A stretch of 36,131 bases of DNA from an archaeon 13_2_20CM_2_53_6. Its GTDB lineage: Archaea > Thermoproteota > Bathyarchaeia > 40CM-2-53-6. The notes under the pieces were generated by a model, which was given only the letters and a program-made list of their open reading frames with translations, made no database searches and had not been told where the DNA came from. The position numbers and the translations under genes were made by a program. The stretch is from assembly GCA_001915065.1 (NCBI GenBank), contig MNDT01000051.1, forward strand, positions 1-36,131, written 5' to 3'. This document shows positions 3,539 through 36,131 of the stretch, one piece after another. Each line of letters opens with the position of its first letter. Within the stretch, counting starts at the first letter, position 1.

Positions 3539-4441
3539 TTGAATGATCAGAGTCTAGAGGGAAGAATTAGGGACTACGATGACGTCATACGTCTCCCACA
3601 AGACGGCCGTTCTCCAGCGGAAATCTCGTACCTGACTGGCATAGCTGATGGAACTATCAGAGGCTGGCTTGTGGATCATCGAAAGCCCTGGACTCGTTAT
3701 GAGCTTTTCAGACCTACTTCTTCGGAACAATTGTCCTATGCTATTGGAGTCTACATGGGGGACGGTTCGATTTCCAAACAGGGAAACCGTTCTGTCTTGC
3801 GTTTGCATGTGAAAGACCGAGAATTCGCTCGTAGGTTTTCTTCAACCTGCTCACAGATTCTGGGAAAGAAACCCTACTCCGTTAGGCATATCGCAGACCG
3901 AGACAAATACGAAACGACCGTTGCAAACACATCCTTCTGCAAGTTCCTTGAACAAACCTTTTCCCAGCTAGATCCGTACATACGAGACCATCCCTCTGGA
4001 TTTTTGCGAGGCCTTGCAGACAGCGATGGATGCCCTGCAATTACAACAACTAAGAAACGAGGCAAACCATGGTTCTTTGTTCAAATTGTGGTCGCAACAT
4101 CAACAAGCATTCCGCTCCTAAGCTATGCACGGACAATTTTGGGAGAATGCTTTAAACTCAAGGCAACGTTGGTGTACAAAGGTAAGCCGCGACCTAGACC
4201 TTACGAGAATGGGTTTTTCCATTCGAAGAAACGGGTCTTCGACCTGAGAATATCACGCTTTGAGGACATAAGACGATTTTCCCGAGTCGTTGGTTTCGGA
4301 CTGTCGCGAAAACAAGTGAAGCTCGAATCCGCCATCGCGGTCCGACAGAGTTTTGGATCTGGCGAAAAAGCAGTGGAAGAGTGGACTCGTAACTGGGAGC
4401 ACGGCAAGACTGAATGGGTTCGAAGGAAAGGAGCAAGCTAA
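3539..4441 (+). CDS. Free-standing LAGLIDADG homing endonuclease
   Basis: 300 residues. An N-terminal helix-turn-helix-like segment (about residues 19-45, RSPAEISYLTGIADGTI) precedes two LAGLIDADG motifs: SYAIGVYMGDGS (66-77) and FLRGLADSDG (155-164), each with the acidic metal-binding Asp. A single-chain two-motif enzyme of this size cuts long asymmetric DNA sites and spreads its own gene. The start is TTG at 3539; no ATG is well placed. It sits exactly between a thiolase gene and its DUF35 partner, and its stop is 2 nt before the DUF35 start. The gene looks A+T-richer than its neighbours, consistent with horizontal arrival. It has its own start and stop and no intein splice motifs, so it is not an intein. 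Confidence 0.85.
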   Translation: MNDQSLEGRIRDYDDVIRLPQDGRSPAEISYLTGIADGTIRGWLVDHRKPWTRYELFRPTSSEQLSYAIGVYMGDGSISKQGNRSVLRLHVKDREFARRFSSTCSQILGKKPYSVRHIADRDKYETTVANTSFCKFLEQTFSQLDPYIRDHPSGFLRGLADSDGCPAITTTKKRGKPWFFVQIVVATSTSIPLLSYARTILGECFKLKATLVYKGKPRPRPYENGFFHSKKRVFDLRISRFEDIRRFSRVVGFGLSRKQVKLESAIAVRQSFGSGEKAVEEWTRNWEHGKTEWVRRKGAS

Positions 4442-22176: not shown

Positions 22177-24906
22177 TCAGTCGGCCATGCCGGGTGGTAT
22201 TGTGAATTGTGCAAGATACGTACTGGTCAGATCGTGGATGTCAACCACTCCATCATAGTTCACGTCGTTTGCGGATAATTTCGACACTGGCATGACGGCT
22301 TTGAACTGGGCGAGGTATACGCTTACGAGGTCATTCACATCCACTCTATTGTCCCGCGTTGGGTCTGGCCAGACGTAGGTCAGACTCCCGGTGGGGGGCC
22401 AGGGTAGACCGCCTGAGGTACAGGGATTTCCGCAGAGTCCTTGTTGCTGAGCCTCAAAGATCAAGCGTTGTATGATGTAGACATCGAGAGAGTTTATTAC
22501 CGGTCCATTGATGCGCACGGTCACCGAGGGGCACGCCGTAGGGCATCCCGTACCGTATGGGTTTTTGAAGGTAATATTGCCCTCGGGCGACATTCTATAG
22601 TCTACGTTGAATCGGAGGGTATCGCTGGGTGTTGTCGCGTTGACCTGCAGCAAGAGGTCAAGGTCGGACTGGTTCACAATTCCATCCCTACCCACGTCGG
22701 GCTGCAAACCTACTCCCGTGGCGGAACTCCAGAACCTGGTTCCATCCTTGTAGTAGGGGTTTGGCTTTAGTAATATGGTATTAGTACAGTCAGCGCCCGA
22801 GCAACCTGCGATCATGTAGGGTCCTGTCCCCACGTACTCGATCGGACCACTGGGACACGTAATGCCGCAGCCGAGGCCTTGGAAGCTCGGAAAGAGGGTT
22901 GCATCGGGAAACGAGCAATTCGCCCTAGGGGAAATCCCAAAGCCAACGTTGTGTCCAGCGGCTGGATTGTAGTCTGCGCACCAGACGTGTTGAGGGATGA
23001 TCGGAAGGAATCCCACGTTCTGAGCCAAGAGGGCGCCGAGGCTGTTGAAGAACACGAGAACTGTCTGGGATCCATCGGCGTTCGAGATGATGGTTGTGTT
23101 GTAGACGCTCTGAACGAATGGATAGTTGATCCCGGGGTTCTTCTGAGCGTACTCGATGCTGAACTTGATGTCCTGACCCGTCAGAGGCTGACCGTCGTTC
23201 CATAGGACTCCCTGCCTGAGTTTGAAGACCCCGACAGCTGCAGCCTGGCTCAGGGCAGTATTGAAGTAGGTGCCCGAGCCGAAGCTGTTCACAAGGACAG
23301 GCACGACTTCTTGAGGGCTAGCGGGGCTTCGGGTCAGCATGCTGTCATAAGTCTGCTGCATGGCCAATTGGTCCCAGAGCCACACACTGGTAACGATATT
23401 GGGTTGTTGAATGGTACTCTTGAATCCCCAGTCCAGGACACCTTGCCCCTTGAAATTGGCGTAGGAGGACCCGGGGGGCTGACAGTTGTTCAGGAACATT
23501 CCGGTAAGCGTGTAGTAATTGTCTAGTCCGGTACCCAGATTGTTCCCGACAAAGTTGGTCCAGCACGCTCTCTGGGTGAAAGACTCCGAGCCCGTGCCCG
23601 TGGCGCCGCTGGTCAGTATTGGAGGGCTTCCATAGTCTCGGATCCATGCCGCCTTGTCTCCAGAAGTAGAGAATAGAGGAACGGTCGGCATCTTCCCCGT
23701 TATCTTTCCAGTGCCGGAACTGTAACCCCAAGCATAAGTCTGAGTGGCAACAGCTGCGTTGATAACGTCGGTGTACGTGGCGCCGGTGTTGATGGGAGCT
23801 GCGAGGTTGTCGTATTGCGCGTCTACGAAGCAGTCAAAATTTAGCGGAAAGTTTCCTTGCCAAGCCCCTCCACAGCCAACCGGGGCCTGACTGCTGCCGT
23901 AGAGGAAGGGAAGATGGTCAGGGTCAAAGTCCAGTCCCCAGCCTCCCGTGTACAGATTCCACCTATTCCATGGTGCTGTGAGTATTATCGAGTTAGCTAC
24001 CCGCCGATCGACCACGTTCGGTGAGACGTTAAGGATGCATGGGTTGCTTGGGCAGACAGTGACTGGACTGCCTCCCGTTTTTGGCGTGTAAGAGTTTGGA
24101 AGGTTCTGCATCTGCTGAACTAGAGCTTGCCCTGCCTGAGTGCGAAGGGGATCATCGATACGGATAAGGAATTTGATGGGTGCAGTGCACAGGTTATTGC
24201 TGTCGACGCATGCTGTCCCTCCCAATGGGGCTTGAGTAGGAGGTGAGGCCAAGCATCCGGAGACTGTTATTCCATTCACTATCGTAGAGCACAGGGGATC
24301 GAACCGCCATCCGCTCTCATAGAGGACCTGAAGGCCCTTGCTAGGGTTGTAGTCGCCGTAGGGCGTGGGATACCCCAGCTGTTGACAGGTAACAGAACCG
24401 GGCTGGCCGAAGGCGGTGCCTGCGCATATAGGCTGGGCAAATCCTCCCGCTATGTTGAGCACTATGTTCTGTCTGTCAACCAGGTACGCGAGCGCCTGGC
24501 GGAAGCCCTGTGTCGAGGAGACGAGGCTGGCGTTGCTGTTCACGTCGATCTCGAACATCCCGATATCGTTATGCTTCCAGGTGAAAACCTGGCCTTGGCA
24601 GACTACACTGGGAACGCTGGTGTCACAGGATGTTGAGCCTGGAACTGTCTGAGTCCAGGTTTTCAAGTATGGAAAGGGAACAGGCCAATCCACAATGTCC
24701 AACGCACCCGCCTGGAACGCGAGCATTTCCTGGTCTAGGCTGTCATACTCGTGAATCAAGACCGTGCCTGTTCCTGGACCCATTGTACCGGGAATCGTAC
24801 CGGAGGCTGACACGTGAGGAAGAGCGATCATGCTGTTTGGAAATGCTAAGATAAAGATCAATATCAGAACAGGTATGAGAATGCTTCTTGCTGGCCTTGG
24901 ATCCAT
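22177..24906 (-). CDS. Oligopeptide-binding protein (SBP_bac_5) with C-terminal dockerins
   Basis: 909 residues. Signal peptide at about 1-34 (SILIPVLILIFILAFPNS), with no lipobox Cys. The body is an extracellular solute-binding family 5 fold: LAFQAGALDIVDWP near the N-terminus and FKLRQGVLWNDGQPLTGQD in the second half. It is longer than usual and rich in paired Cys. Near 735-820 a dockerin-like module starts DVGRDGIVNQSDLDLLL. At about 848-905 a clear type I dockerin has two Ca-binding repeats, DPTRDNRVDVNDL and DVNYDGVVDIHDL, each followed by a YLAQF helix. No C-terminal membrane helix is present, so surface retention must come from docking. The cohesin protein at 34686-35948 is the expected receptor and the Dpp operon at 29-35 kb the expected transporter. 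Confidence 0.85.
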   Translation of the reverse strand: MDPRPARSILIPVLILIFILAFPNSMIALPHVSASGTIPGTMGPGTGTVLIHEYDSLDQEMLAFQAGALDIVDWPVPFPYLKTWTQTVPGSTSCDTSVPSVVCQGQVFTWKHNDIGMFEIDVNSNASLVSSTQGFRQALAYLVDRQNIVLNIAGGFAQPICAGTAFGQPGSVTCQQLGYPTPYGDYNPSKGLQVLYESGWRFDPLCSTIVNGITVSGCLASPPTQAPLGGTACVDSNNLCTAPIKFLIRIDDPLRTQAGQALVQQMQNLPNSYTPKTGGSPVTVCPSNPCILNVSPNVVDRRVANSIILTAPWNRWNLYTGGWGLDFDPDHLPFLYGSSQAPVGCGGAWQGNFPLNFDCFVDAQYDNLAAPINTGATYTDVINAAVATQTYAWGYSSGTGKITGKMPTVPLFSTSGDKAAWIRDYGSPPILTSGATGTGSESFTQRACWTNFVGNNLGTGLDNYYTLTGMFLNNCQPPGSSYANFKGQGVLDWGFKSTIQQPNIVTSVWLWDQLAMQQTYDSMLTRSPASPQEVVPVLVNSFGSGTYFNTALSQAAAVGVFKLRQGVLWNDGQPLTGQDIKFSIEYAQKNPGINYPFVQSVYNTTIISNADGSQTVLVFFNSLGALLAQNVGFLPIIPQHVWCADYNPAAGHNVGFGISPRANCSFPDATLFPSFQGLGCGITCPSGPIEYVGTGPYMIAGCSGADCTNTILLKPNPYYKDGTRFWSSATGVGLQPDVGRDGIVNQSDLDLLLQVNATTPSDTLRFNVDYRMSPEGNITFKNPYGTGCPTACPSVTVRINGPVINSLDVYIIQRLIFEAQQQGLCGNPCTSGGLPWPPTGSLTYVWPDPTRDNRVDVNDLVSVYLAQFKAVMPVSKLSANDVNYDGVVDIHDLTSTYLAQFTIPPGMAD

Positions 24907-24980
24907 AAGATTCAGATCTGCCGGGGAAAAATGGGGGCTAAGGGTAAAAAGGTTTTACATCTAGGTAGAGCGGAAGCCGT

Positions 24981-27062
24981 CTACGGATTTCCACTGGTTG
25001 CCCGAGTAGCATCACCCGAGGAACCGTGTTTCAACTGGGCGTCTCGCCTTAGATAGAGGACGACCATGAGGCCTAGTGCTACCAGGGACCCAGCCAGCCC
25101 GTATGAGAGGTAGGTCGAGAGGAGGGAGCCATTCTGAATGGGAGGCTGGGCTAGAACGGTTATTCCGACTGTCTGGGAAACGGACCTTCCGCCGGCGTCC
25201 GTAACGGTAACGTTCGCTGAGTAGAAGCGGGGAAGGGAGTATGTGTGTACGGGGGAGGATACCGCGGATGATTGTCCGTCATCGAAGGACCATGAGTAAG
25301 AGTAGGGTGAGATGCCGCCGGAAGCTTGAGAGCTAAACGACACTGTTAAGGGGGCGGTGCCACCGGTTATGTTTGACGTTGCCGTGAGCGTCAACTGATT
25401 TGTAGCTCCAGGCGCAAGAACGCGGACCTGGACCCTGGTGGTCTCAGCCTCGGACCCGCTGTTTCCGGTTATCGTCACGTCGTAGTTTCCCGATTGGGCC
25501 CCCGTCGCATTTACTCCAAGGGAGACAAAGACTCTGCTCTGCATGGTCAAGTCTACACTCGTCTGGTTGAGAGAAATCGAGAGACCTTGAGGTGAGGTGG
25601 AGGCAGAGAGAGATACTGTCCCGGAGAAATTTCCGAGACTGTACAACCTTACTGTAGATTTTAAGGATGACCCGGAGTAGAGCACCAAGGAGGCTGGACT
25701 TGCGGACAGGACGAATCCAGATCCCTTGTATAGATAGGCAGCTCCGGACTCTAGGAGACCTCCATGGGAGTTGAACGGAGCGCCGAACAGGTAATCCGAC
25801 GAAGTGCCCCCATAAACTGACCATCCCATATTGTCGCCAGCAGACTCGCCATCAATCTCTACGATAAGACCAAAGTCAATTCCCGAGTATATGTAGACGC
25901 TACCGGCATCCGTTCTCCCGCCTGGAGAGGCAAGGTCTGCGGCAATTATGAGAGTAGGGCTGACATTGTTCGGGTCTGTCTCCATGGATACAGCCCAACC
26001 GAAATCGTCACCCGACGAGGGACCGTCGAAGCGATGAACGAGTGTGTAATTCGATCCGGAGAAGAGATACGCCGACCCAACGTTCGCCCTACCTCCAGGG
26101 CTGGCAGACGGAGCTCCGATGATCAGGTCAGGCCTCCCATCGCCAGGGATGCCCAGTCCACCGGCAACAGAGGTACCAAAAAAGTCCCCCGCCACCTCTC
26201 CATCGAACCGTTTTAACAGACTGAGTCCGCGGCCAGAAAATAGGTAAGCGCTTCCAGCGTTAACCCTACCACCCGGATCAGCTAGGTCAGCACCAACAAG
26301 AAGATCCGGAATACCGTCCCCATTAACATCGGCTACTCCAGCTAGGGACACTCCGAACTCGCTATGGGCCATCTCACCATCCAGCCGCCGATAGACAGTA
26401 AGATTACTGCCAAAGTACACGTAGACGCTGCCCGCATTCGTTCTCTGAGAATCAGGAGATGCGTCTATCGCCCCAACAGCAAACTCCGGACGAGCGTCGA
26501 CATGAAGATCCCCAACAGTAGCAATGGACGCTCCAAAAAGTTCCCCCGCGACCACCCCATCAAGCCTGCGAATCAGAGAGAAATCCCGCCCTTCGAACAC
26601 GTATACGCTCCCCGCGCGCGATCGGCCTCCCGGACTAGCCATGTCCGCACCTATGAGGAGATCAGCATATCCGTCGCCATTGAGATCTGCAGTGCCTGAG
26701 ACTGAGGCTCCAAAATCATCGCCCGAATTCTGACCATCGAATCTGTGAATGAGAGTGAAATTTTTTCCTGAAAATAAGTACGCGCTTCCCGCCCCTGTAC
26801 GGTTTCCCGGAGACTCACCAGGAGCTCCAATCAAAATCTCGTTGTAACCATCATGAAACAGGTCGCCCACTCGAGTGATGCTGAGCCCCAAGTCTCCGCT
26901 CGTGACTGCGCCGTTGAACTTGTTGATGAGCTGCAATTGAAGATTCGATTGCTGTCCCGAAACGGTGAAATTTGTGAAGGGACTGGTGGAGATGAGAATT
27001 AGGGAGAGGACAAGCAGCCGTGTTCGCAATCGGGAGAACGGGACTCCTCTTTGAGACCGCAT
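24981..27062 (-). CDS. FG-GAP repeat / PKD surface protein with C-terminal anchor
   Basis: 693 residues from ATG at 27062; an in-frame GTG at 27089 overlaps a TATA-like box (27072-27084) and is less likely, while TTG at 27029 is also possible. A signal peptide is followed by seven FG-GAP blades of about 60 residues, each with RFDG..GD.FG, a Ca-site of the DLNGDGYADLLIGA type, SPGGR and GSAYLFSG. This forms an integrin-alpha-like beta-propeller. Next come a NEW3-like sandwich (SASPASLVLYSG on), a PKD domain (YSWSFDDGQ), one membrane helix and YLRRDAQLK. It should be an extracellular adhesion or binding protein. It lies upstream of, and on the same strand as, the dockerin-bearing binding protein, with a 75-nt gap. 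Confidence 0.88.
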   Translation of the reverse strand: MRSQRGVPFSRLRTRLLVLSLILISTSPFTNFTVSGQQSNLQLQLINKFNGAVTSGDLGLSITRVGDLFHDGYNEILIGAPGESPGNRTGAGSAYLFSGKNFTLIHRFDGQNSGDDFGASVSGTADLNGDGYADLLIGADMASPGGRSRAGSVYVFEGRDFSLIRRLDGVVAGELFGASIATVGDLHVDARPEFAVGAIDASPDSQRTNAGSVYVYFGSNLTVYRRLDGEMAHSEFGVSLAGVADVNGDGIPDLLVGADLADPGGRVNAGSAYLFSGRGLSLLKRFDGEVAGDFFGTSVAGGLGIPGDGRPDLIIGAPSASPGGRANVGSAYLFSGSNYTLVHRFDGPSSGDDFGWAVSMETDPNNVSPTLIIAADLASPGGRTDAGSVYIYSGIDFGLIVEIDGESAGDNMGWSVYGGTSSDYLFGAPFNSHGGLLESGAAYLYKGSGFVLSASPASLVLYSGSSLKSTVRLYSLGNFSGTVSLSASTSPQGLSISLNQTSVDLTMQSRVFVSLGVNATGAQSGNYDVTITGNSGSEAETTRVQVRVLAPGATNQLTLTATSNITGGTAPLTVSFSSQASGGISPYSYSWSFDDGQSSAVSSPVHTYSLPRFYSANVTVTDAGGRSVSQTVGITVLAQPPIQNGSLLSTYLSYGLAGSLVALGLMVVLYLRRDAQLKHGSSGDATRATSGNP

Positions 27063-27162
27063 TCGTCCTCTGGAATATTTAAGCAGCACAATCCTGAGAG
27101 TCTAGATTCCTTACCAACTCGCGTGAATACTCCACGCCAAATCAACGCTCGTTCTCGCGGAA

Positions 27163-28089
27163 TCAGTAACCGGAGGCGTAGAAGACAAGCCCAGTCAGAA
27201 CTGGGGCCGCGAGGTTCGTTTGGAGGAACGGATTGTCGTAGTGTCTGCTCATATACCAGACGGCAATGTCTTTTCTAAAGACGCTCTCGCCGTTGACGTA
27301 TGAGGATAAGTCTTGATCGACCTGATCAGGCAAGTGGCTCTTTTCGATCTCGTTCGCGTGATCCTGGACCACGATGATGGTCCCGGGGGTCCAGAGCGTC
27401 TCTTGGATATCCGTTGGAGTAAAGAAGACCCCTCTGCTTCCTTGAGCCACCTCCCAGCTCGTGAACATGTGTGAAGAGTCTCGCATCCCGGTATCGTTGA
27501 GAATGGTCTCCTGTCGGATTGGCACCCATCCGACGGTCTGGTATTGGAGTATGATGTTTCTCACATCGCTTCCGATCGCGAAGTCCAAGCGCCAGTGAGG
27601 TTCGTAGTAGTGGATCTCATTGCATCCACCTCTACCAATTTGAAGCAGTGCTAGAAAGTGTCCGTCAGGATAGAATCTCCAGATCTGTTGGTAATCGTAG
27701 CCTGGTACTTCGTAGTAGCCTCTGATCTGGAATCCCCCGGCCGTTAGGTTGTCATAGTATAGAGCGTAGGGCGCCGGATTCGGAGGTCCGATCCATGCAG
27801 ACCTCAACTCGTCATAGAAGTAGCAGGCTTGATTATAGAAGGGATAGTAATTCACTATTATCCCAGCCAGTCTTGCATCCCGTAGGAGCAAAACTCCGTT
27901 GTAGCTCACGTTGTAGAGTTGTATCCCGTCGTCCAAGGAGACGTTCCACGGAATTGTCCAGCCACTACGAACTATTGGATTGTTCGAGAAAACTGCCCGA
28001 GCAGTGGGAATGTGGGAGAGGATGGGAAGTGTGGACAGAGCAGTGACGCATAGAACAAACAGGACCCTTAGGAGGCGTCGGCCCTTCAT
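27163..28089 (-). CDS. Secreted protein resembling copper amine oxidase beta-supersandwich
   Basis: 308 residues from ATG at 28089, which has GGAG 5 nt upstream; GTG at 28104 is the longer alternative. Signal peptide LLRVLFVLCVTALSTLP. The mature part recalls the C-terminal domain of copper amine oxidases: DGIQLYNVSYNGVLLLRDAR, then a WRFYPDGHFLALLQIGRGG block, then HYYEPHWRLDFAIG with two His where the copper HxH site would be, then DIAVWYMSRHYDNPF before the C-terminal strand. I do not see the Asn-Tyr-Asp/Glu motif that makes the topaquinone cofactor, so activity as an amine oxidase is doubtful. It may be a non-catalytic relative. Placement between surface-protein genes fits an extracellular role. 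Confidence 0.5.
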   Translation of the reverse strand: MKGRRLLRVLFVLCVTALSTLPILSHIPTARAVFSNNPIVRSGWTIPWNVSLDDGIQLYNVSYNGVLLLRDARLAGIIVNYYPFYNQACYFYDELRSAWIGPPNPAPYALYYDNLTAGGFQIRGYYEVPGYDYQQIWRFYPDGHFLALLQIGRGGCNEIHYYEPHWRLDFAIGSDVRNIILQYQTVGWVPIRQETILNDTGMRDSSHMFTSWEVAQGSRGVFFTPTDIQETLWTPGTIIVVQDHANEIEKSHLPDQVDQDLSSYVNGESVFRKDIAVWYMSRHYDNPFLQTNLAAPVLTGLVFYASGY

Positions 28090-28221
28090 CGAAGCTCCAG
28101 TCACTCAAAATAAAGATCTGTTGGGAGGCATAAATGCTTCTGGCATCTTTCCGGATTAGGTTATATTGTCGACTGGGAGCAGTTCGAGAACCGAGAAGTT
28201 CAGTTCACCCGTGTTGGACCT

Positions 28222-28911
28222 ATGAGGTTTGCACTTCTACTCATATTGACCTTGACGCTAGCTCCATCTATGCTTCCCACTGGAGCCGCGCAGTATTCCG
28301 TAGGAGTGCGCCCGGGGGACTGGACCAAATACCAGATTAGTGGAGACCTATCTGAGAACGCAGTAGTCTCCAACCTAACCGTGATACAGGTCTCTCGAAC
28401 AAATGTTACCGTGAAATCCACAGACTTTTACAACGATGGCACGAACTCCAGTAACTTCCTGTGGGTAGACATCTCGACAGGACAGAACAACACGGCTCAA
28501 TCCGGTTTCCCAGCATTCTTCTTCATCATTCTCCCAAGTAGGGGTATTGGAGAAGGGATCTACGGAGTTCAATCACTGGTCATTCAAAACAGTCTTGAAA
28601 GAACGTACGTACAGACCATCAGACGGACGAACTTTGCCAACATCACGACTGTCGGATCTGGAAGCACCTCGTACTATTGGGATGCCCAGACGGGAATTCT
28701 TGCGGAAATTCTGCAGTTACACCAAAATAGAACCGTGGCGATTCACGCGATGATAGTAGCAACTAGCCTTTGGAGCCCTCAGCCCCAAAACTCTTCCCTG
28801 ATATTCTTGGAAGCCACGCTGATCGGCGTCATAGGTGCGGGCATGGCCGTTCTGGCTTACGCTAGGCTTTCTAGAAGACACAAGAGTAAGAAGCCTAGAG
28901 CCCGCAACTGA
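28222..28911 (+). CDS. Hypothetical membrane-anchored extracellular protein
   Basis: 229 residues from ATG at 28222. Signal peptide FALLLILTLTLAPSMLP; extracellular beta-rich middle with several N-glycosylation sequons (NLT, NVT, NSS, NIT); membrane helix about 192-213 (LEATLIGVIGAGMAVLAYA) and a strongly basic tail (SRRHKSKKPRARN). The motif VRPGDWTKYQISGD near the N-terminus is seen in many archaeal surface proteins of unknown function. It is the only plus-strand gene in the surface island, lying between the Dpp operon and the surface-protein genes. A TATA-like TTATATT lies about 60 nt upstream. Confidence 0.6.
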   Translation: MRFALLLILTLTLAPSMLPTGAAQYSVGVRPGDWTKYQISGDLSENAVVSNLTVIQVSRTNVTVKSTDFYNDGTNSSNFLWVDISTGQNNTAQSGFPAFFFIILPSRGIGEGIYGVQSLVIQNSLERTYVQTIRRTNFANITTVGSGSTSYYWDAQTGILAEILQLHQNRTVAIHAMIVATSLWSPQPQNSSLIFLEATLIGVIGAGMAVLAYARLSRRHKSKKPRARN

Positions 28912-29057
28912 TCTCGATCATGTGGGATAACGAGGTTGCCGGGCAATACTGAGATAGTCCTCAAGCCCCATCACCGGTTTCGTTGGGACCGCCGAAGGAA
29001 CGACCTCATCGCCGACCTTTAGGATCAATGAACCAGTATCTATTGGGCTAGATCGAG

Positions 29058-30074
29058 CTAGTAGCCTTTGGCCTCTCCTATTAGGTGGCAGGCAGCCCAA
29101 TGGCCGGGCTCCGCTTCAATCAGCGGGGGTTCGTCCTGTGTACATCGTTCAAAGGCATACGGGCAACGTGTGTGGAATCTGCAGCCGTTTGGCGGGTTGA
29201 TCGGACTTGGTATTTCTCCGCTAATCACGGCCTCGCCCCTTTTCTTGTCGGGATCTGGGGATGGGACGGCTCGTATTAGTGCGTCAGTGTAGGGATGGAG
29301 CGGGCTGGCGATTACGCTATCTGCTGGGCCGATCTCCATGATCTTTCCGAGGTACATGACTGCTATTCGGTCGCAGATGTGTCTGGCCAAGGCCAGGTCA
29401 TGGGTGATGTATACAAAGGAGGCACCTCTTTTCGCGACCAAGTCGACCATGTTGTTGAGGACTTCAGCTCTGATGGAAACGTCTAGCATTGAAACAGGCT
29501 CGTCTGCTACGACAAGTTCAGGATTCAGGATAAATGCTCGGGCCACTGCTACTCTCTGCCGCTGCCCGCCGCTTAGCTCGTGAGGGTAACGATACATGAA
29601 CTCTTCCGGAGGAACAAGCTCAACCTCTCTAAGGGCTTGCTTGACTCTCTCTTCGACCTCTTCACCGGTCTTATAGTCGTGTTGAACCTGGACTGGTTCT
29701 GCAACGATATCTTTCACTAGCATTCTAGGGTTGAGGGACTCGTACGGGTCTTGGAAGATTATCTGTAACTGGCGACGGACCCTCTTGAGCTGGCGCGATG
29801 ACAACTTTGCGATGTTCCTTCCTCGAAACTCGATAGTCCCCTTTGTCACGTTTATGAGCCGTAGGATCAGCCGACCCGTTGTTGTCTTTCCACTCCCGCT
29901 CTCTCCAGCCAGCCCTAGAATCTCCCCTTTTCGAACTGTGAAGCTGACGTCATCAACTGCTTTCACGTACAGTTGCTGACCAACCAAGGTTGAGAGAAAG
30001 CCCGTTCTGACCGGGAACCATTTTGTCAGGCCTTCGACCTTTAGCAATTCGTCCTGTTCCTTCAATTGTCTCAC
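29058..30074 (-). CDS. dppF: Oligopeptide ABC transporter ATP-binding protein DppF/OppF
   Basis: 338 residues. Walker A GESGSGKTT, signature LSGGQRQRVAVARA, Walker B LVVADEPVSMLDV and H-loop THDLALA are complete. The C-terminal oligopeptide-transporter extension has the Cys pattern GCRFHTRCPYAFERC and AACHL, which in some relatives binds a 4Fe-4S cluster. It pairs with DppD to power peptide import. Its GTG start overlaps the DppD stop (GTGA), so the two are translationally coupled; it is the last gene of the operon. Confidence 0.93.
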   Translation of the reverse strand: MRQLKEQDELLKVEGLTKWFPVRTGFLSTLVGQQLYVKAVDDVSFTVRKGEILGLAGESGSGKTTTGRLILRLINVTKGTIEFRGRNIAKLSSRQLKRVRRQLQIIFQDPYESLNPRMLVKDIVAEPVQVQHDYKTGEEVEERVKQALREVELVPPEEFMYRYPHELSGGQRQRVAVARAFILNPELVVADEPVSMLDVSIRAEVLNNMVDLVAKRGASFVYITHDLALARHICDRIAVMYLGKIMEIGPADSVIASPLHPYTDALIRAVPSPDPDKKRGEAVISGEIPSPINPPNGCRFHTRCPYAFERCTQDEPPLIEAEPGHWAACHLIGEAKGY

Positions 30075-31036
30075 ATTTTGTCGGGGTACAGGTGGCAGGC
30101 CACATAGTGGTCCGGTCTCAACTCAATCAGAGGTGGCTGAACCTTCTTACAGACGTCCATGACGTACGGGCATCTCGGGTTGAATCGACAGCCTACGGGA
30201 GGATTGAGAAGGTCGGGGGGCTGACCTGGTACGGAAGACAGTCTTTTACGTTCGCCTCGAATATCTGGAAACGCCTGCAGCAGACCCTGAGTGTACGGGT
30301 GCAGAGGCTCGTGGAATACACTTGGAGTACTACCATACTCGGCAATGTTTCCTGCATACATGATCACGACCCGTTCGCAGGTCTCAGCTATTATCGACAG
30401 GTCATGTGATATGAGAATCATGGAGAGATCAAGTTTTTCCTTCAGGTCCCTCATCAGACGTAGGACTTGAGCTTGGACTATGACGTCAAGCGCGGTTCCA
30501 GGCTCGTCAGCAATTACAAGTTTGGGGTTGCAGGCAAGCGCCATGGCGATGAGGGCTCTCTGCCTCATCCCGCCGCTGAATTCGTGGGGATATCCGTCGA
30601 CTCTTTCCGGATCGATCCCTACGAGCTCCAGAAGTTTCGCGGCCCGTTCTCGACATTCTTCCTTTGAGACTTCCTTATCGTGGGTCCTTATCGCTTCGAT
30701 TATCTGGTCTCCTATCTTGTATACGGGATCGAGAGCGTTCATTGCTCCCTGAAAAACTATAGACATGTCCCTCCATCTTACTTGCCTCATCTCTCTGTCG
30801 GTTAGATTGAGAAGGTTCCTGCCGTCGAGGTTTATCTGGCCCTTCAGGATCCTTCCAGCTTTGGGAAGTAGTCTCATGAGTGAGAGTGCCACTGTGGTCT
30901 TGCCGCAGCCTGACTCGCCGGCGAGCCCGAGGGACTGGCCCTTCTTGACGCTGAAGCTTATTCCTTCGGCTGCCCTCACTGGTCCTCTCTTGGTCTCGTA
31001 GTTTACTGTTAGATCTTTGACCTCCAAGACCGACAA
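30071..31036 (-). CDS. dppD: Oligopeptide ABC transporter ATP-binding protein DppD/OppD
   Basis: 321 residues from TTG at 31036. Walker A GESGCGKTT, Q-loop IVFQGAMNALDPV, signature FSGGMRQRALIAMALA, Walker B KLVIADEP and H-loop SHDLSII are present. After Walker B it reads DEPGTALDV where nearly all DppD proteins have DEPTTALDV. The C-terminal Cys-bearing domain (GCRFNPRCPYVMDVC, VACHL) is complete. It forms the heterodimeric motor with DppF. Confidence 0.93.
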   Translation of the reverse strand: MSVLEVKDLTVNYETKRGPVRAAEGISFSVKKGQSLGLAGESGCGKTTVALSLMRLLPKAGRILKGQINLDGRNLLNLTDREMRQVRWRDMSIVFQGAMNALDPVYKIGDQIIEAIRTHDKEVSKEECRERAAKLLELVGIDPERVDGYPHEFSGGMRQRALIAMALACNPKLVIADEPGTALDVIVQAQVLRLMRDLKEKLDLSMILISHDLSIIAETCERVVIMYAGNIAEYGSTPSVFHEPLHPYTQGLLQAFPDIRGERKRLSSVPGQPPDLLNPPVGCRFNPRCPYVMDVCKKVQPPLIELRPDHYVACHLYPDKM

Positions 31037-31105
31037 TGGGTTGTCTGACCTGTTATGCGATACGGAATCGAAAAGCTATGAATAAGCTTTGGGGAGGCAA
31101 GACTT

Positions 31106-32068
31106 CTATTTTCGTCTCTTTCCTAGCCGGCGACTGCGGGTTAACCTTCGGTCTGCAAGAGCCGTTAACGCCCATGCCGCGAATGCGACAATGATCACGC
31201 TGGCAAAGACGGGTTCGAGGAGGTTCGACCCGAAATACACCAGGTTTCCCTTCGGAGAGGCGAATCCAGGAGCGGTCAGGGTTGCTCCGACAGAGTAGAT
31301 CGCTTCCTCCGTGGTCGTCACGGTCTCGCCAGTCGCCTCGTTTATGCTGATCTTGGCGAGAATATCGAACCCCACGTGGCTCGTCCACGCCGTCATCTGG
31401 GAGTCCGTGTTGAAGCCTCCTGACCATAGGTCGAGAGAGGCTGAGAGCGATGAGAAGTCGAGGAGGTTCAGGTTCGGTACTAGTTGTTCAATCTGGAGTG
31501 GCGAAATTTGGGCTCTGCCCATCTGAAACGTTACGGTCTCGATGCGGCTCGGATTTGGGAGCAGGGAGTTCTTTGCAAGGGTGACGAGGCTTTGTCCTAC
31601 TTCGCTCTTGCCGACTAGGTTGAAGGCAACCCCGTTGGACATGACTCCTTCTTGGACTTTGAATGATCTCCAAGCAAAGTCAGCACTCGCAGAGCCTCCG
31701 AAGTAGGAATGGATAGCTCCTAAAACGGAGAAGTTGAGGCTATAAGTTAGGATTGTTCCGTTGGAAGATGCAGTTAGACTAGGGCTCTCCACCCAGACTT
31801 GAGAATCCAACCGTCGTAGAGAGTTGTTCAAGTCCTGCGTTAGAGCTGTTGAGTTGGAATGGTCGATCGTGAGGTTGAACGGAGATGTTGTGGTGATGTT
31901 CTGGAATAGGGAGCCTGAGATACCTACCGATATATGGTCTCCTGTCACAGAGATCTGGTAAGCGTTTGAAGATGTGGCGAGAGCCGCGTTGGGGAGGCCA
32001 GCGACCAGGGCCGCCACTATGAGTATCAGTAGCGTCTTGACTCTGGTTACTCTTCGTACTAGGGGCAA
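31106..32068 (-). CDS. Unknown anchored extracellular protein inside the Dpp operon
   Basis: 320 residues from TTG at 32068, with GGAG 4 nt upstream. A signal peptide (TLLILIVAALVAGLPNAALA) is followed by about 250 residues of extracellular sequence with many sequons (NIT, NLT, NST, NNS). A membrane helix lies near 283-305 (ASVIIVAFAAWALTALA) and the tail is RRLTRSRRLGKRRK. No known domain is recognised. It sits between the permease DppC gene (34-nt gap) and the ATPase DppD gene (70-nt gap) on the same strand, so it is almost certainly co-expressed and probably part of, or an accessory to, the transporter at the outer face. Confidence 0.7.
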   Translation of the reverse strand: MPLVRRVTRVKTLLILIVAALVAGLPNAALATSSNAYQISVTGDHISVGISGSLFQNITTTSPFNLTIDHSNSTALTQDLNNSLRRLDSQVWVESPSLTASSNGTILTYSLNFSVLGAIHSYFGGSASADFAWRSFKVQEGVMSNGVAFNLVGKSEVGQSLVTLAKNSLLPNPSRIETVTFQMGRAQISPLQIEQLVPNLNLLDFSSLSASLDLWSGGFNTDSQMTAWTSHVGFDILAKISINEATGETVTTTEEAIYSVGATLTAPGFASPKGNLVYFGSNLLEPVFASVIIVAFAAWALTALADRRLTRSRRLGKRRK

Positions 32069-32101
32069 AGTCTCCGGCCTAGAAAATGTGTAGGTGACTG
32101 A

Positions 32102-33637
32102 TTAACGTCGTTGCCTCAGCCTGGGGTTCAAGATATCGTCTATGCCGTAACCCACGAGTATGAAGGAGAGCGATAGGAGCGCTATGGAAATACCTGGCGG
32201 AACGAACCACCACCAGAAGAAGAAGCCCTGGAAGCTCTCAGCATTGTTGAGCATTCTTCCCCATGACATGACGAATGGGTCGAAGAGCCCGAGAAAACTA
32301 AGGGCTGCTTCCAAGGTAATGGCTGCAGGGACGCTTGTTGCTAGGCTCACATAGGTGAGCCCCATAACATTGGGGAGGATGTGTTGGCGTATGAGGTGTC
32401 CGGTCCCTGCGCCAACCGCTCGGGAGGCTTCTACGAAAGGCCTCTCCTTCAGTGTCACAACTTGGGACCTGATCACTCTGGCGAAGCCCATCCAGCCGAG
32501 GAGTGCGATGACTGTTATTATTGACGTGAGGCTGGGACTGAGAATTGCGACGAGCACCAAGATTAGAGGGAGGCCTGGGAGGACCAGTAGCATGTCTGTG
32601 AACCTCATGAGAACCTCGTCGAGAACTCCGGCCTTGAAGCCTGCCACCAAGCCCACGACGAGCCCTACTCCTACGGCAATGCCGGCTGCGAGTAGCCCGA
32701 CTAGAAGGGATACTCGGGCGCCGTAGACTAGCTGACTGAATAGGTCTCTCCCTACGTAATCAGTCCCGAGTAGCCCGTAGGAAGTTCCATAAAGCCTCAG
32801 GCTGATATCGTCCAAGTAGACGATCCCCGAGAACGGTTGAGAAAGATCAGTGTCAGCTATAGTGACGACGAGTTTGAACGAATAGGATCCCATGCTAGAG
32901 AAGACGAGCGCGTTCGGGAGTATTCCTCTCTGGCTGGCTGCTCGGAAGATCGAGGAGGTTTGGAGCGATGAGTCCAGCGAGTCGATTTGTGGATTCGGAG
33001 TATACCATAAGTTATAGGGCTGTTGTGCCAGACTATCGGCGGAAGCCACACGATATGACTGGTTTCCAATTCTGTCGATTGTGAAGAGGGCTGCTACAGT
33101 GCTCGGAGTGGCTCCGGATAGATGAAAGAGGACTGAGCCGGTTCCCACGAATCTTCCCGGAGGACCGTCATATGGATAGTTGAACCGGGACTCGACTGTG
33201 AAGTTGATGCCTCCATAGATGCTCCCTGACGTTCGTGGGGCTACGTTTACCTGGAGGCTTCCTGCGGCATTGTGACCCACTGTGGGAGAGTACTGGAAGC
33301 TAACCGCCCCCGGGTTGTTCGTGGTTAGCGTGTATTGCGAGATTGAATCCTGCGTGTCGAATGCCCCTGTTGAAGTCTGGGAGGGAACAAGTTGGTTGGC
33401 ACTGAGTCCCTTCTCGAAGGTTAGGGTCCGATACCAGGATGGAGCAGCATAATTGGCTGCTAAGTTCTGGGCGTATACAGGATCGTTGCTTGTGAGGAGC
33501 GGGGCGAAGAGTGCTATGAGGATGTAGAATACGATGATGGATGTTCCGAAGATGGCTCTTCTACTTCTTCTAATGAGGAAGAAAACGTTAAGGATTCTGC
33601 CTAGGCCCTTTCGGAGGCGGACCTCTCTGGCTTCCAA
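32102..33637 (-). CDS. dppC: Oligopeptide ABC transporter permease DppC with large extracellular insert
   Basis: 511 residues from TTG at 33637; a normal DppC has about 300. TM1 (about 27-50, ending APLLTSNDP) and the canonical GTDYVGRDLFSQLVYGARVS before TM2 are conserved, as is the EAA loop EASRAVGAGTGHLIRQHILPN. Between TM1 and TM2, where standard proteins have some 25 residues, there are about 220. This insert begins near YAAPSWYRTLTFEKG and is beta-rich, with VSFQYSPTVGHNAAGSLQV, FVGTGSVLFHLSGA and IVYLDDISLRLYG; it looks like a jelly-roll, carbohydrate-binding-like sandwich on the outer face. It could bind the docked substrate protein, peptides or the glycan layer. TTG start lies 7 nt after the DppB stop. 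Confidence 0.9.
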   Translation of the reverse strand: MEAREVRLRKGLGRILNVFFLIRRSRRAIFGTSIIVFYILIALFAPLLTSNDPVYAQNLAANYAAPSWYRTLTFEKGLSANQLVPSQTSTGAFDTQDSISQYTLTTNNPGAVSFQYSPTVGHNAAGSLQVNVAPRTSGSIYGGINFTVESRFNYPYDGPPGRFVGTGSVLFHLSGATPSTVAALFTIDRIGNQSYRVASADSLAQQPYNLWYTPNPQIDSLDSSLQTSSIFRAASQRGILPNALVFSSMGSYSFKLVVTIADTDLSQPFSGIVYLDDISLRLYGTSYGLLGTDYVGRDLFSQLVYGARVSLLVGLLAAGIAVGVGLVVGLVAGFKAGVLDEVLMRFTDMLLVLPGLPLILVLVAILSPSLTSIITVIALLGWMGFARVIRSQVVTLKERPFVEASRAVGAGTGHLIRQHILPNVMGLTYVSLATSVPAAITLEAALSFLGLFDPFVMSWGRMLNNAESFQGFFFWWWFVPPGISIALLSLSFILVGYGIDDILNPRLRQRR

Positions 33638-33644
33638 TTACGCC

Positions 33645-34646
33645 CTACCCGTACTTTATCCGGGGGTCGATTAGTCCAAGAATAATGTCTGCGGCGAAAT
33701 TGGCGATAATGACCATGAGGGCGATAATGTAGAAGATGGCTTGCATTGCAGGATAGTCATTGTTGTTTATGGAACGGAGAATCCACCAGCCCATACCCTC
33801 GTAGGCAAATACGCTCTCCGTGATCAACGCTCCGGCTAGAATGAAGCCCACGCCCAGGGCAATCGATGTCACAATTGGAAGGGACGCATTCTTGAGAGCA
33901 TGCTTAAAGAGCACGGTTCTCTCGCTTAGGCCCTTGGCTCTAGAGGTCAGAATATAATCGTCGGTCAGAGCTTCTGTCATTGTCGCTCTCGTGAGAAGCA
34001 GATAGCCACCGTACTGGAAGAGAAAGAGCACCATTACAGGGAGGAATAGGTGTTGCGCTCTCCCTTGAATATACTCGACAAGTCCGCTGAAAGTACCAGT
34101 ATTTGGTGGACTGAGGGTCCAGTTGTCAGGCTGATCGTGGGCAAGAGGGAACCAGTGGAGGTAATAGAAGAAGATGAGGATGGCCGTGACGCCCATGAAG
34201 AAGGTTGGCAGCGAAAAAGTGACCAGCGAGCCTGTCACGGCTGCCGAGTCGAATACCCCACCCCTCCTGCTGGCCGTGATGACTCCGAGGAATACTCCAA
34301 CAGTTATCGACAGAACGGTTGAGACCCCGATGAGGAGAAGAGTGTCGGTCAGCCTTGCGACGATCTCGTTGGAGACGGGCGCCGCGGTGTAGAAGGAGTA
34401 TCCGAACTGGAAGGTCAGCATGTTGACGACGTAGTCCTGAAACCTCGTGAAGACATCTTTGTCAAGGCCGAATTTTGCTATGACGCTGTCGCGTGCTGTT
34501 GTGCTGTGGAGCTTTCCTGTTGAGGCTAGTGCGTCGATCGGGCTTCCCGGCATCACCTCGAAGATTATGAAGTTGAGGGTTATCACGAAGAGGAGCAGTA
34601 CGAGGGTATATGCGGATCTTCTTGCTATGTAACCTCGGAGCCCCAA
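33645..34646 (-). CDS. dppB: Oligopeptide ABC transporter permease DppB
   Basis: 333 residues from TTG at 34646. Six membrane segments are visible, the first as YTLVLLLFVITLNFIIF. The N-terminal PGSPID and the EAA-type cytoplasmic loop (ILTSRAKGLSERTVLFKHALKNA) contact the ATPases. The C-terminus ends with ADIILGLIDPRIKYG, the standard DppB ending. It forms the translocation path with DppC. It lies 40 nt downstream of the cohesin gene on the same strand, so both are probably on one mRNA. Confidence 0.93.
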   Translation of the reverse strand: MGLRGYIARRSAYTLVLLLFVITLNFIIFEVMPGSPIDALASTGKLHSTTARDSVIAKFGLDKDVFTRFQDYVVNMLTFQFGYSFYTAAPVSNEIVARLTDTLLLIGVSTVLSITVGVFLGVITASRRGGVFDSAAVTGSLVTFSLPTFFMGVTAILIFFYYLHWFPLAHDQPDNWTLSPPNTGTFSGLVEYIQGRAQHLFLPVMVLFLFQYGGYLLLTRATMTEALTDDYILTSRAKGLSERTVLFKHALKNASLPIVTSIALGVGFILAGALITESVFAYEGMGWWILRSINNNDYPAMQAIFYIIALMVIIANFAADIILGLIDPRIKYG

Positions 34647-34685
34647 AGCCGACGAGTGATTGCTGGCGTGATTTTCTTTATATTC

Positions 34686-35948
34686 TTATCGTTGCGCCGA
34701 ATCTTCCGCTTCTTCGGCTCTGATGCGCCGACTCCTGAGGAAGAAGAGCCCGACGGCAACGGCAACTACTGCACCCACGCCCCCTGCAGGAATTACCCAA
34801 ACCGGAAAGTTGTTCAGTACTGGCGGGACGAGTTCTCCCGAAACAGTTACGGTCTGGTTCAGAGTGTCCGAGAGACGACACGAACACGTGTCCGTAACAG
34901 TGAGGCTCACGGTATAGTTGCCGGGCTTGTTGAAGGTGTGTGTGACGATATAGCCCCCGCCTGAGCCACCATCACTGAAGAGCCAGAGGGGGTTCGGGAG
35001 TAGCGGGTCGCCGTCTGGGTCGTAGCTGGCCGTCGCGTTGAAGGTGACAGGTTGGCCGGGACGCGGGTTGCTGGGTGAGAAGGTGAATAGAGCTCTCGGG
35101 GGCGTGTTGTAGCCGCTGACGTAGATAGTCTCTATAGTGGATGCGTTGGCGGCTACCCCGGTAGGGTTCCCGTCGTCGGTCACCGTGAGGTTGACGTGGA
35201 GGGGTCCCCCTGAGATAGCGTAGGTGTGGATTATTACCGGCACGGTCACTGCTGTCTGATTCCCGTCGCCAAAATTCCATGAATATCTGACGATACTTCC
35301 GTCGGAGTCGTAGCTGCCCGAGGCATCAAAAGTGGTTGGTCTAGTGGCGACCGGAGGAGAAGGCGAGATTGCGAATGAGGCTTTAGGTGGAATGTTGTAT
35401 GGGATGTTGGAGAAGAGCCCGTTTACTATTGTGTGTTGAATTTCCGTGGCGGTACTGCCGACAATGGAGATCAGCGCGGTATTGTTCATCACTAGACTGG
35501 TCGTCCCAAGTGCTAACACCTGGGCTTTTACGTACAATAGGGTCCCGTTGCCAACGAAGCCGGCGTCGGGATAGTTGCTCACAACGATAAGATCGTCGGA
35601 TTGTACTAGACCGGTCGTTGCGTTAAACTTACCGGTGAATAATGTACTCCCTCCCAAGGCATTGGCGATATCGCTCAACGCTGGACCCTCGATGACCTGA
35701 GTAATCTTGAGAAGTGTTGCATTCAGCTTAAGGTATAGCTGCCAAGCATGAAGAGTCTCGGGGCTTGGACCGACATTCGATACGTTAATCGCGAAGGTCG
35801 TAACACTCCCTGCACCTAGGCCCAGGTTGACAATGCTGGGCGCGGTCATTATGGCATTGTTCGTTGCGTTGACAAAATGAGAGGCGATTGAGGGAAACGT
35901 TAAGATTAGCAACGCAAGGATGATCCAGATGGCTCGACTTTTCATCAT
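34686..35948 (-). CDS. Membrane-anchored cohesin protein with two PKD domains
   Basis: 420 residues. Signal peptide at about 1-28. Residues about 33-185 read as a cohesin domain: GAGSVTTFAINVSNVGPSPE, LHAWQLYLKLNATLLKITQV, GNGTLLYVKAQVLALGTTSL, and a closing IVNGLFS. Cohesins bind dockerins tightly in a Ca-dependent way. Two PKD domains follow (SYDSDGSIVRYSWNFGDG and SYDPDGDPLLPNPLWLFSDG), acting as a stalk, then a membrane helix (VWVIPAGGVGAVVAVAVGLF) and LRSRRIRAEE. It would display one cohesin above the membrane. It starts 5 nt after a dockerin-ended gene and precedes dppB by 40 nt, so its natural partners are encoded beside it and at 22177-24906. Confidence 0.82.
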   Translation of the reverse strand: MMKSRAIWIILALLILTFPSIASHFVNATNNAIMTAPSIVNLGLGAGSVTTFAINVSNVGPSPETLHAWQLYLKLNATLLKITQVIEGPALSDIANALGGSTLFTGKFNATTGLVQSDDLIVVSNYPDAGFVGNGTLLYVKAQVLALGTTSLVMNNTALISIVGSTATEIQHTIVNGLFSNIPYNIPPKASFAISPSPPVATRPTTFDASGSYDSDGSIVRYSWNFGDGNQTAVTVPVIIHTYAISGGPLHVNLTVTDDGNPTGVAANASTIETIYVSGYNTPPRALFTFSPSNPRPGQPVTFNATASYDPDGDPLLPNPLWLFSDGGSGGGYIVTHTFNKPGNYTVSLTVTDTCSCRLSDTLNQTVTVSGELVPPVLNNFPVWVIPAGGVGAVVAVAVGLFFLRSRRIRAEEAEDSAQR

Positions 35949-35953
35949 GATCC

Positions 35954-36131
35954 CTATGTGAACTGGTGAGTATAGGTAAGGACTAGGTCGTGAATGTCTA
36001 CGATCGGGACGGGAGTATCGCCGGTCACATCGTACTGTGCTATGTTTGTAAACTGGTGCTGCCAGACGGCAATGAGGTCGTTTATGTCCACCACTCTGTC
36101 TCCAGTAACATCTCCCATCTTGCGGACGCAG
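35954..36131 (-). CDS. C-terminal dockerin of a protein cut by the window edge
   Basis: Only the last 58 codons are in the window. They form a type I dockerin with two repeats: GDVTGDRVVDINDLIAVWQ and DVTGDTPVPIVDIHDLVLTY, each followed by HQF, ending in TAG at 35954. The second repeat is close to the last repeat of the binding protein at 22177 (VVDIHDLTSTYLAQF). The first repeat has Arg in place of the usual Gly in the Ca loop. The remainder lies beyond position 36131. Because it heads the cohesin-Dpp operon, a second substrate-binding protein is the most likely identity, but this cannot be seen. Confidence 0.75.
   Translation of the reverse strand, partial: CVRKMGDVTGDRVVDINDLIAVWQHQFTNIAQYDVTGDTPVPIVDIHDLVLTYTHQFT

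What the first reader, a model, noticed from the sequence alone, without database searches (positions are those of the whole stretch)
22177..36131. Cohesin-dockerin-tethered oligopeptide uptake system
A dockerin-ended gene, a membrane-anchored cohesin-PKD-PKD protein, permeases DppB and DppC, an unknown anchored protein and ATPases DppD/DppF form one minus-strand operon. A peptide-binding protein with dockerins lies 4 kb downstream on the same strand. Seen: the domains and gene order. Known: cohesin and dockerin form high-affinity pairs in cellulosomes and occur in some archaea without cellulase systems. Inferred: the cohesin holds soluble binding proteins at the mouth of the importer, a non-covalent alternative to lipid or TM anchoring, which could allow exchange of binding proteins of different specificity.
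Basis: partly seen in the sequence, partly recalled or inferred. Interest (0 to 1): 0.88.

Follow-up and report, generated by a model that had tools for sequence, protein, structure and literature searches.

The report
Cohesin socket beside archaeal peptide importer
An archaeon may hold the food-catching proteins of a peptide importer at its surface with the same cohesin-dockerin snap-fastener that builds cellulose-digesting machines in bacteria; the parts and their repeated grouping are there, but the binding itself has not been tested.

Summary
The parts are real. Residues ~31-182 of the 34686-35948 product are a divergent cohesin: Pfam misses it, but its nearest homologue passes Pfam's Cohesin cut-off and a family profile matches only cohesin-bearing chains in the PDB. 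The protein has two PKD domains and a C-terminal membrane helix, and lies 39 bp upstream of dppB in a tight run. Dockerins end the contig-cut upstream gene and the binding protein (SBP) at 22177-24906, which lies outside the run. In the genus, anchored cohesin - long SBP - DppB recurs: a cohesin gene lies within 4 kb in 8 of 11 loci of this DppB type with room upstream, against 0 of 11 loci of another type. Dockerin-SBPs fall on one side of the permease tree; one genome has six for one DppB. Against: about half of these transporters have SBPs without a dockerin while the cohesin persists; other dockerin proteins could be its partner; lack of a C-terminal anchor is not peculiar to these SBPs (8 of 17 others lack it too). 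Dockerin-SBPs are already reported in ANME archaea. Extras: DppC of this type carries an unknown outside domain, and the SBPs are circularly permuted. Verdict: new variant of a known kind, partly supported.

The parts
35954..36131 (-). C-terminal 58 residues of a gene cut by the contig end; nearly all of it is a dockerin (two repeats, the second loop with an insert)
   Evidence: translation; genus dockerin HMM; A3 profile E 1.3e-18, but A3 contains it
34686..35948 (-). membrane-anchored cohesin protein, 420 aa: N-terminal hydrophobic (signal-like) segment, cohesin, two PKD domains, C-terminal TM with basic tail
   Evidence: hydropathy
35403..35858 (-). cohesin domain, residues ~31-182
33645..34646 (-). 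DppB-type permease
   Evidence: PF00528 1.9e-38; 18 of 18 genus genomes, this one included, have a match
32102..33637 (-). DppC-type permease with a large inserted region
   Evidence: PF00528 9.8e-27, OppC_N; TM spacing
32762..33496 (-). DppC region between TM1 and TM2 that holds the insert; no Pfam match, no significant PDB match
31106..32068 (-). unknown protein with N-terminal and C-terminal hydrophobic segments, recurrent near this transporter type
   Evidence: 14 of 18 genus genomes, this one included
30071..31036 (-). DppD-type ATPase
   Evidence: ABC_tran + oligo_HPY
29058..30074 (-). DppF-type ATPase
   Evidence: ABC_tran + oligo_HPY
22177..24906 (-). peptide/solute-binding protein, family 5, segments in circularly permuted order, with C-terminal dockerin; outside the dpp run
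   Evidence: SBP_bac_5 3.9e-18; order of segments; PDB
22210..22377 (-). C-terminal dockerin of the SBP
   Evidence: residues 847-894; extent, whose profile contains it
22603..22704 (-). weak half-dockerin (EF-hand-like) inside the SBP, residues 735-768; marginal
   Evidence: 7.1 bits

Best explanation
The 34686-35948 product is a membrane-anchored cohesin that stands beside the DppBCDF-type importer and binds, through Ca2+-dependent cohesin-dockerin pairing, secreted proteins that carry the matching dockerin: chiefly peptide-binding proteins, here the 22177-24906 product and perhaps the upstream dockerin protein. These SBPs have a signal-like N-terminus and no C-terminal membrane helix, so the pairing would keep them on the cell and let several SBPs share one importer. 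Shown: domains, order, hydropathy, recurrence in relatives. Inferred: binding, Ca2+ dependence, cleavage of the signal, substrate (peptides, from family), sharing.
For: Cohesin and dockerin homology. Order coh-TM, SBP+dockerin, DppB in G004, G009, G012, G014; in G008 and G011 contig fragments show the end of a dockerin-SBP directly before DppB, and in G017:C20 a dockerin-ended fragment, with the cohesin out of view. Cohesin gene (HMM E<1e-5) within 4 kb of DppB in 8 of 11 loci of this type with at least 4 kb of contig upstream, 10 of 11 within 6.2 kb, against 0 of 11 fetched loci of the other DppB type (Fisher p 0.001; loci are related). Dockerin presence splits the transporters along one branch of the DppC tree: with only visible labels 7 against 7 loci, support 89/98; with SBPs adjacent to DppB only, 6 against 7, support 100/99. 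It also changes once on the DppB, DppD and DppF trees, with weaker support 56/52, 67/72, 82/85. Several dockerin-SBPs per transporter: G012 six for one DppB at E<=1e-10. A separate family of the class has a Pfam-grade dockerin-SBP (SBP_bac_5 7e-30, Dockerin_1 26.8 bits) followed 0.5 kb on by a Pfam-grade cohesin gene (35.1 bits). In the window's genome three dockerins and two cohesins were found; the three dockerins share a QF signature that none of the other 48 stretches compared has, a feature noticed after the fact.
Against: At this transporter type the SBPs of G001:C87, G003, G010, G013 (two loci), G015, G016 and a G002 fragment have no recognisable dockerin; in G001, G003, G010, G013:C135 and G015 a cohesin gene still stands directly upstream of them. 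In G001, G010 and G013:C135 the gene before that cohesin encodes a non-SBP dockerin protein. G002:C94 has room but no cohesin. Lack of a C-terminal helix is shared by 8 of 17 SBPs of other types, and an uncleaved N-terminal anchor is not excluded. In the window the SBP is about 10 kb from the cohesin and not in the run. The G099 case shows no hit to the window's Dpp proteins in the 20 kb read. The window domains fall under Pfam's cut-offs. No structure or binding data.
Confidence: 0.48

Rival explanations
1. The anchored cohesin mainly holds other dockerin proteins of a surface network (propeller-like proteins, PKD scaffolds); it travels with the dpp genes because all belong to one cell-surface locus. 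SBP dockerins, where present, dock on other cohesins.
For: Non-SBP dockerin genes directly precede the anchored cohesin in G001, G010, G013:C135; these three have BNR or Reg_prop matches, some under cut-off. Many extra cohesins exist in the genus, including a 2195-aa protein with three. The anchored cohesin persists where SBPs lack dockerins.
Against: A cohesin with C-terminal helix is 64-171 bp from a long SBP on ten contigs, and one whose helix falls under my threshold is 190 bp away in G015; dockerin-SBPs fall on one side of the permease tree; the window's genome shows only one other cohesin (the genome is about 80% complete).
Confidence: 0.31
2. The C-terminal repeats of the SBPs are structural Ca2+ modules descended from dockerins and bind nothing.
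For: In most relatives the SBP dockerin is followed by further residues (19 to 134 in those with a full hit other than G001:C180), and in several its second Ca2+ loop is degenerate. The dockerin profile also hits EF-hand proteins, at weaker scores.
Against: The window SBP has a two-repeat dockerin at its very C-terminus, similar to the one ending the upstream gene (42% identity in A3; 38% over 47 columns), with a cohesin gene on the same contig.
Confidence: 0.11
3. Cohesin and dockerin serve cell-cell or matrix adhesion, with the SBP acting as an adhesin or sensor rather than in uptake.
For: Cohesin/dockerin proteins are discussed as adhesins or attachment parts in ANME and partner bacteria (PMC9012536, PMC10553843, passages).
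Against: Permeases and ATPases lie in the same run, and the order is kept across several species.
Confidence: 0.08

Closest known systems
Dockerin-bearing ABC substrate-binding proteins of ANME archaea (PMC9012536, passages read)
   Same: NikA/OppA-type SBPs with dockerins in archaea not thought to degrade cellulose
Cellulosome with cell-surface anchoring scaffoldins (recalled; PDB cohesins and dockerins matched)
   Same: cohesin and dockerin modules; cohesin on a surface anchor
   Different: cargo is a nutrient-binding protein; single cohesin; anchor is a TM helix with PKD domains; no glycoside hydrolase over Pfam's cut-off among the 21 dockerin proteins scanned here
Cellulosome-like complex proposed for Ca. 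Stygibacter, Cloacimonadota (PMC8542988, passages read)
   Same: non-clostridial cohesin-dockerin surface complex
   Different: there dockerins are on peptidases and glycoside hydrolases and cohesins on a large scaffoldin-like protein
Archaeal SBPs anchored by a C-terminal TM helix (recalled as a kind; seen here)
   Same: SBP held at the outer face; 9 of 17 SBPs of other types tested in this genus have such a helix
   Different: covalent membrane anchor in the SBP itself instead of a separate anchored cohesin

Membership tests
Cohesin (PF00963) | Pfam match over the curated cut-off | tested here: not met
   no match for the window protein
Cohesin (PF00963) | homology to accepted cohesins by sequence or profile | tested here: met
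Cohesin (PF00963) | jelly-roll beta fold | tested here: inconclusive
   single-sequence AlphaFold2 model, pLDDT 31
Cohesin (PF00963) | binds a dockerin | not testable with these tools
   needs a binding assay
Dockerin_1 (PF00404), window SBP and upstream fragment | Pfam match over the curated cut-off | tested here: not met
   14.4 bits and 16.8 bits against 22.9
Dockerin_1 (PF00404), window SBP and upstream fragment | two EF-hand-like repeats, each with a Ca2+ loop and helix | tested here: met
   sequence; genus HMM; the fragment's second loop has an insert; helices judged from sequence only
SBP_bac_5 (PF00496) | Pfam match over the cut-off | tested here: met
   66.2 bits against 32.4
SBP_bac_5 (PF00496) | canonical order of segments | tested here: not met
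   residues 57-202 match profile 159-280, residues 560-722 match 20-143
Dpp/Opp ABC importer | two permeases, two ATPases with oligo_HPY, family-5 SBP | tested here: met
   SBP outside the run
Cellulosome | scaffoldin with several cohesins | tested here: not met
   one cohesin in the window protein; up to three in one protein of a relative
Cellulosome | dockerins on polysaccharide-degrading enzymes | tested here: inconclusive
   0 of 21 dockerin proteins scanned with Pfam (16 of the 42 listed, plus 5 of class relatives) have a glycoside hydrolase over cut-off; one GH43 hit lies under it

The most novel reading that the evidence does not exclude
A plug-in importer: one DppBCDF machine whose DppC carries its own extra outside domain, served by an anchored cohesin socket into which a set of interchangeable, circularly permuted, dockerin-tagged binding proteins is plugged. 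Permutation and dockerin together would set where on the binding protein the tether sits.
Probability: 0.25. Interest if true: 0.82.

Novelty: new variant of a known kind. Interest (0 to 1): 0.62.

Why it matters
Archaeal binding proteins are generally thought to be held by lipids or membrane helices (recalled). A non-covalent, modular tether would let one importer be served by several binding proteins, and would give cohesins and dockerins of archaea that are not known for cellulosomes a concrete, testable job. The system looks small in the window's own genome (two cohesins and three dockerins found), so the pairing can be tested with few proteins.

Tried and rejected
Pfam alone for the cohesin: no match; replaced by relatives and profiles. 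The idea that the open frame 34686-36131 is one long gene: rejected, since the dockerin gene reads in another frame up to a stop 5 bp before the ATG at 35948. Structure models of the window cohesin domain and SBP dockerin from single sequences: pLDDT 31 and 44, not used, no fold search made. The one scan of genome contigs with the whole protein brought 31 loci whose matches lie in query residues 136-407, mostly the PKD part. Identity of the upstream cut gene (SBP or propeller type): undecided. A homology for the DppC insert: none in Pfam for 11 members, one PDB hit at E 0.85. The iterated dockerin and combined cohesin HMMs contain window sequence, so their window scores are circular and are not used as evidence for the window domains; the A3 and A5 own-genome searches also contain window sequences, and only their other hits are informative.
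Full report
What is there. On the minus strand a tight run holds: the end of a gene cut by the contig end; a 420-aa anchored protein; DppB; a 511-aa DppC; an unknown 320-aa protein with N- and C-terminal hydrophobic segments; DppD; DppF. Gaps are 5, 39, 7, 33 and 69 bp and a 4-bp overlap (coordinates). About 4 kb further on, past a plus-strand gene and two minus-strand genes, is the 909-aa binding protein. Pfam confirms the permeases, ATPases and SBP_bac_5.

The cohesin. Pfam sees only PKD-type domains in the anchored protein and no Cohesin in the genome at E<=1. The first 182 residues match a protein of another family of the same class, G042:C44, at E=6e-14 and 37% identity; the same stretch of G042 is over Pfam's Cohesin cut-off. 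The window domain aligned with ten relatives (A1) gives a profile whose 29 PDB matches at E<=0.1 are all cohesin, scaffoldin or cellulosome-anchoring chains. Nine of eleven members hit Pfam Cohesin; the window's does not. Profile comparison with nine cohesins of the genus gives probability 99. The protein ends in a membrane helix and a basic tail.

The dockerins. The cut gene ends in a two-repeat dockerin, as does the SBP. Both score under Pfam's cut-off (14.4 and 16.8 bits against 22.9), but an HMM built from 22 Pfam-grade dockerins of other genomes of the genus finds both. A profile that includes them has solved dockerins as its best PDB matches (2y3n, 7.8e-18), with EF-hand proteins such as calmodulin lower down among the 60 of 156 shown. 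In this genome three dockerins (two on this contig, one in a 611-aa protein on contig C1) and two cohesins were found. The three dockerins share a QF signature that none of the other 48 stretches compared has; I noticed this after the fact.

Conservation. Pfam Dockerin_1 occurs in 13 of 18 and Cohesin in 15 of 18 genomes of the genus at the loose thresholds used (E<=0.1 and E<=1; over the cut-off in 9 and 11 of 18), and in 48 and 47 of 151 genomes of the class at E<=0.001. DppB relatives fall in two types: this type, 48% identity or more to the window, 21 loci counting the window; and another, 30-38%, 12 loci. Of the 11 loci of this type outside the window with at least 4 kb of contig upstream, 8 have a cohesin gene within 4 kb and 10 within 6.2 kb on either side; G002:C94 has none. 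Of the 11 loci of the other type that I fetched (about 4 kb each side, less at a few ends), none has; the twelfth was not fetched, and one cohesin lies 8.6 kb from the G004:C12 locus. Fisher test for 8/11 against 0/11: p=0.001, with the caution that the loci are related. The usual order is anchored cohesin, long SBP, DppB, DppC, DppD, DppF, often followed by the unknown protein. A cohesin protein with a C-terminal helix is 64-171 bp from a long SBP on ten contigs, not all of them with dpp genes in view, and in G015 one whose helix falls under my threshold is 190 bp away. The unknown protein has relatives in 14 of 18 genomes, this one included.

Binding proteins with and without dockerin. SBPs just before DppB of this type carry a dockerin in G004, G009, G012, G014 and, by contig fragments, G008 and G011; in G017:C20 a dockerin-ended fragment stands there that resembles the end of a dockerin-SBP elsewhere in G017. 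They lack one in G001:C87, G003, G010, G013 (two loci), G015 and G016, and a G002 fragment ends likewise without one. On a first DppC tree of 16 loci the label changes once (90/98), but two labels there were assumed (G017:C17, where no SBP is visible, and G017:C20). With only visible labels, 7 against 7 loci, it still changes once (89/98); with only SBPs adjacent to DppB, 6 against 7, the split has support 100/99. It also changes once on the DppB, DppD and DppF trees, with support 56/52, 67/72 and 82/85. By tree position G017 has permeases on both sides. So dockerin-SBPs go with one part of the transporter tree; a single gain or loss is enough, which also means few independent events.

Anchors. 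None of 32 long SBPs tested has a membrane helix in its last 110 residues (29, five of them without their true N-terminus, plus 3; one of 1334 aa has a hydrophobic stretch within its last 160). SBPs cut at the C-terminus were left out. Of 17 SBPs of other types, 9 have a C-terminal helix and 8 do not; those 8 may be held by their N-terminal helix. So the missing helix is compatible with tethering but does not prove it.

Several SBPs per importer. G012 has six dockerin-SBP genes, four in tandem on another contig and one with only a half-dockerin hit, and one DppB at E<=1e-10. In another family of the class, G099:C39 has a 705-aa SBP with a Pfam-grade dockerin followed by a gene with a Pfam-grade cohesin, with no hit to the window's Dpp proteins in the 20 kb read.

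Results against. Where SBPs lack a dockerin a cohesin still stands directly upstream in G001, G003, G010, G013:C135 and G015, and in G001, G010 and G013:C135 its own upstream neighbour is a non-SBP dockerin protein, propeller-like by Pfam. Of 21 dockerin proteins scanned with Pfam (16 of the 42 listed for the genus, plus 5 of class relatives), none has a glycoside hydrolase over cut-off. So the anchored cohesin may serve other partners, at least in part of the genus. Nothing here measures binding.

Mechanism. Best reading: the cohesin is a socket on the membrane; secreted SBPs plug in by dockerin, Ca2+-dependent; they deliver to DppBC; several SBPs may share one importer. Shown: domains, topology by hydropathy, order, recurrence. 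Inferred: binding, signal cleavage, sharing, peptide as substrate. A further hint: in the 16 full-length DppC of this type TM1 and TM2 start 242-278 residues apart, against 65-75 in the 11 of the other type (one fragment left out). The insert has no Pfam match and only one insignificant PDB hit. By topology it should face outside and could receive the SBP or the cohesin; that is a guess.

Circular permutation. The SBP segments are in an unusual order: window residues 57-202 match the later part of SBP_bac_5 and 560-722 the earlier part. A profile of 16 long SBPs aligns its positions 614-705 to residues 68-161 of a solved SBP and, not significant by itself, 91-191 to residues 181-298. A G015 SBP matches the solved OppAIV (4gl8) as 216-532 to 38-338 and 58-146 to 379-466, the second piece at E 5e-4. 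Two SBPs of the genus, 51% identical, are permuted relative to each other: 159-589 to 47-466 (2e-150) and 52-147 to 477-565 (5e-19). Two library searches found no paper that describes this: one returned a single biosensor paper (listing only), the other none.

What is known. Chadwick et al. 2022 (PMC9012536, passages seen) state that common dockerin proteins in ANME are SBPs of ABC transporters, NikA/OppA among them, and that binding partners need experiment. PMC5244752 and PMC10553843 treat cohesin/dockerin in relation to adhesion, PMC8542988 as a cellulosome-like complex; passages seen only. Peer et al. 2009 was not held. I found no description of an anchored cohesin encoded with the permeases in searches, of which I saw the listings (20 of 27, 12 of 16) and which cover open-licence PMC text only. 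Hence: new variant of a known kind.

Noticed in passing
window 22177-24906; L238:3491-5233; L239:5247-7001; L243:4778-6547: Family-5 binding proteins here have circularly permuted segment order relative to SBP_bac_5 and solved structures. Two SBPs 51% identical are permuted relative to each other, so break points differ; Pfam coordinates suggest a third break point for the long SBPs.
   Followed up: partly
window 32762-33496; 16 DppC proteins: DppC of this transporter type has roughly 170-210 extra residues between TM1 and TM2, with no Pfam match and no significant PDB match.
   Followed up: partly
L210:3028-15206 (G012:C25): Four dockerin-SBP genes in tandem on a contig without a DppB match at E<=1e-10.
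   Followed up: partly
L176, L212, L213, L216, L217, L224 SBPs; L160, L165, L166, L210 SBPs: Several SBPs without dockerin end in ...GYDC; several dockerin-SBPs end in ...FFC or ...YFC...GC. Both put a cysteine at the very C-terminus; meaning unknown.
   Followed up: no
L172:10014-16601 (G013:C135): A 2195-aa protein with three cohesin hits and PKD-like motifs, a possible scaffoldin.
   Followed up: no
L053:6582-7403, L055:19169-19982: Small proteins of class relatives that hold both a cohesin and a dockerin hit, which could chain head to tail (the second is cut by the contig end).
   Followed up: no
window 24981-27089: FG-GAP repeats plus PKD and a C-terminal hydrophobic segment next to the SBP gene, an integrin-like surface protein.
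   Followed up: no
window 3539-4441: LAGLIDADG-like domain (Pfam 4e-11) in an ORF just after a thiolase gene.
   Followed up: no
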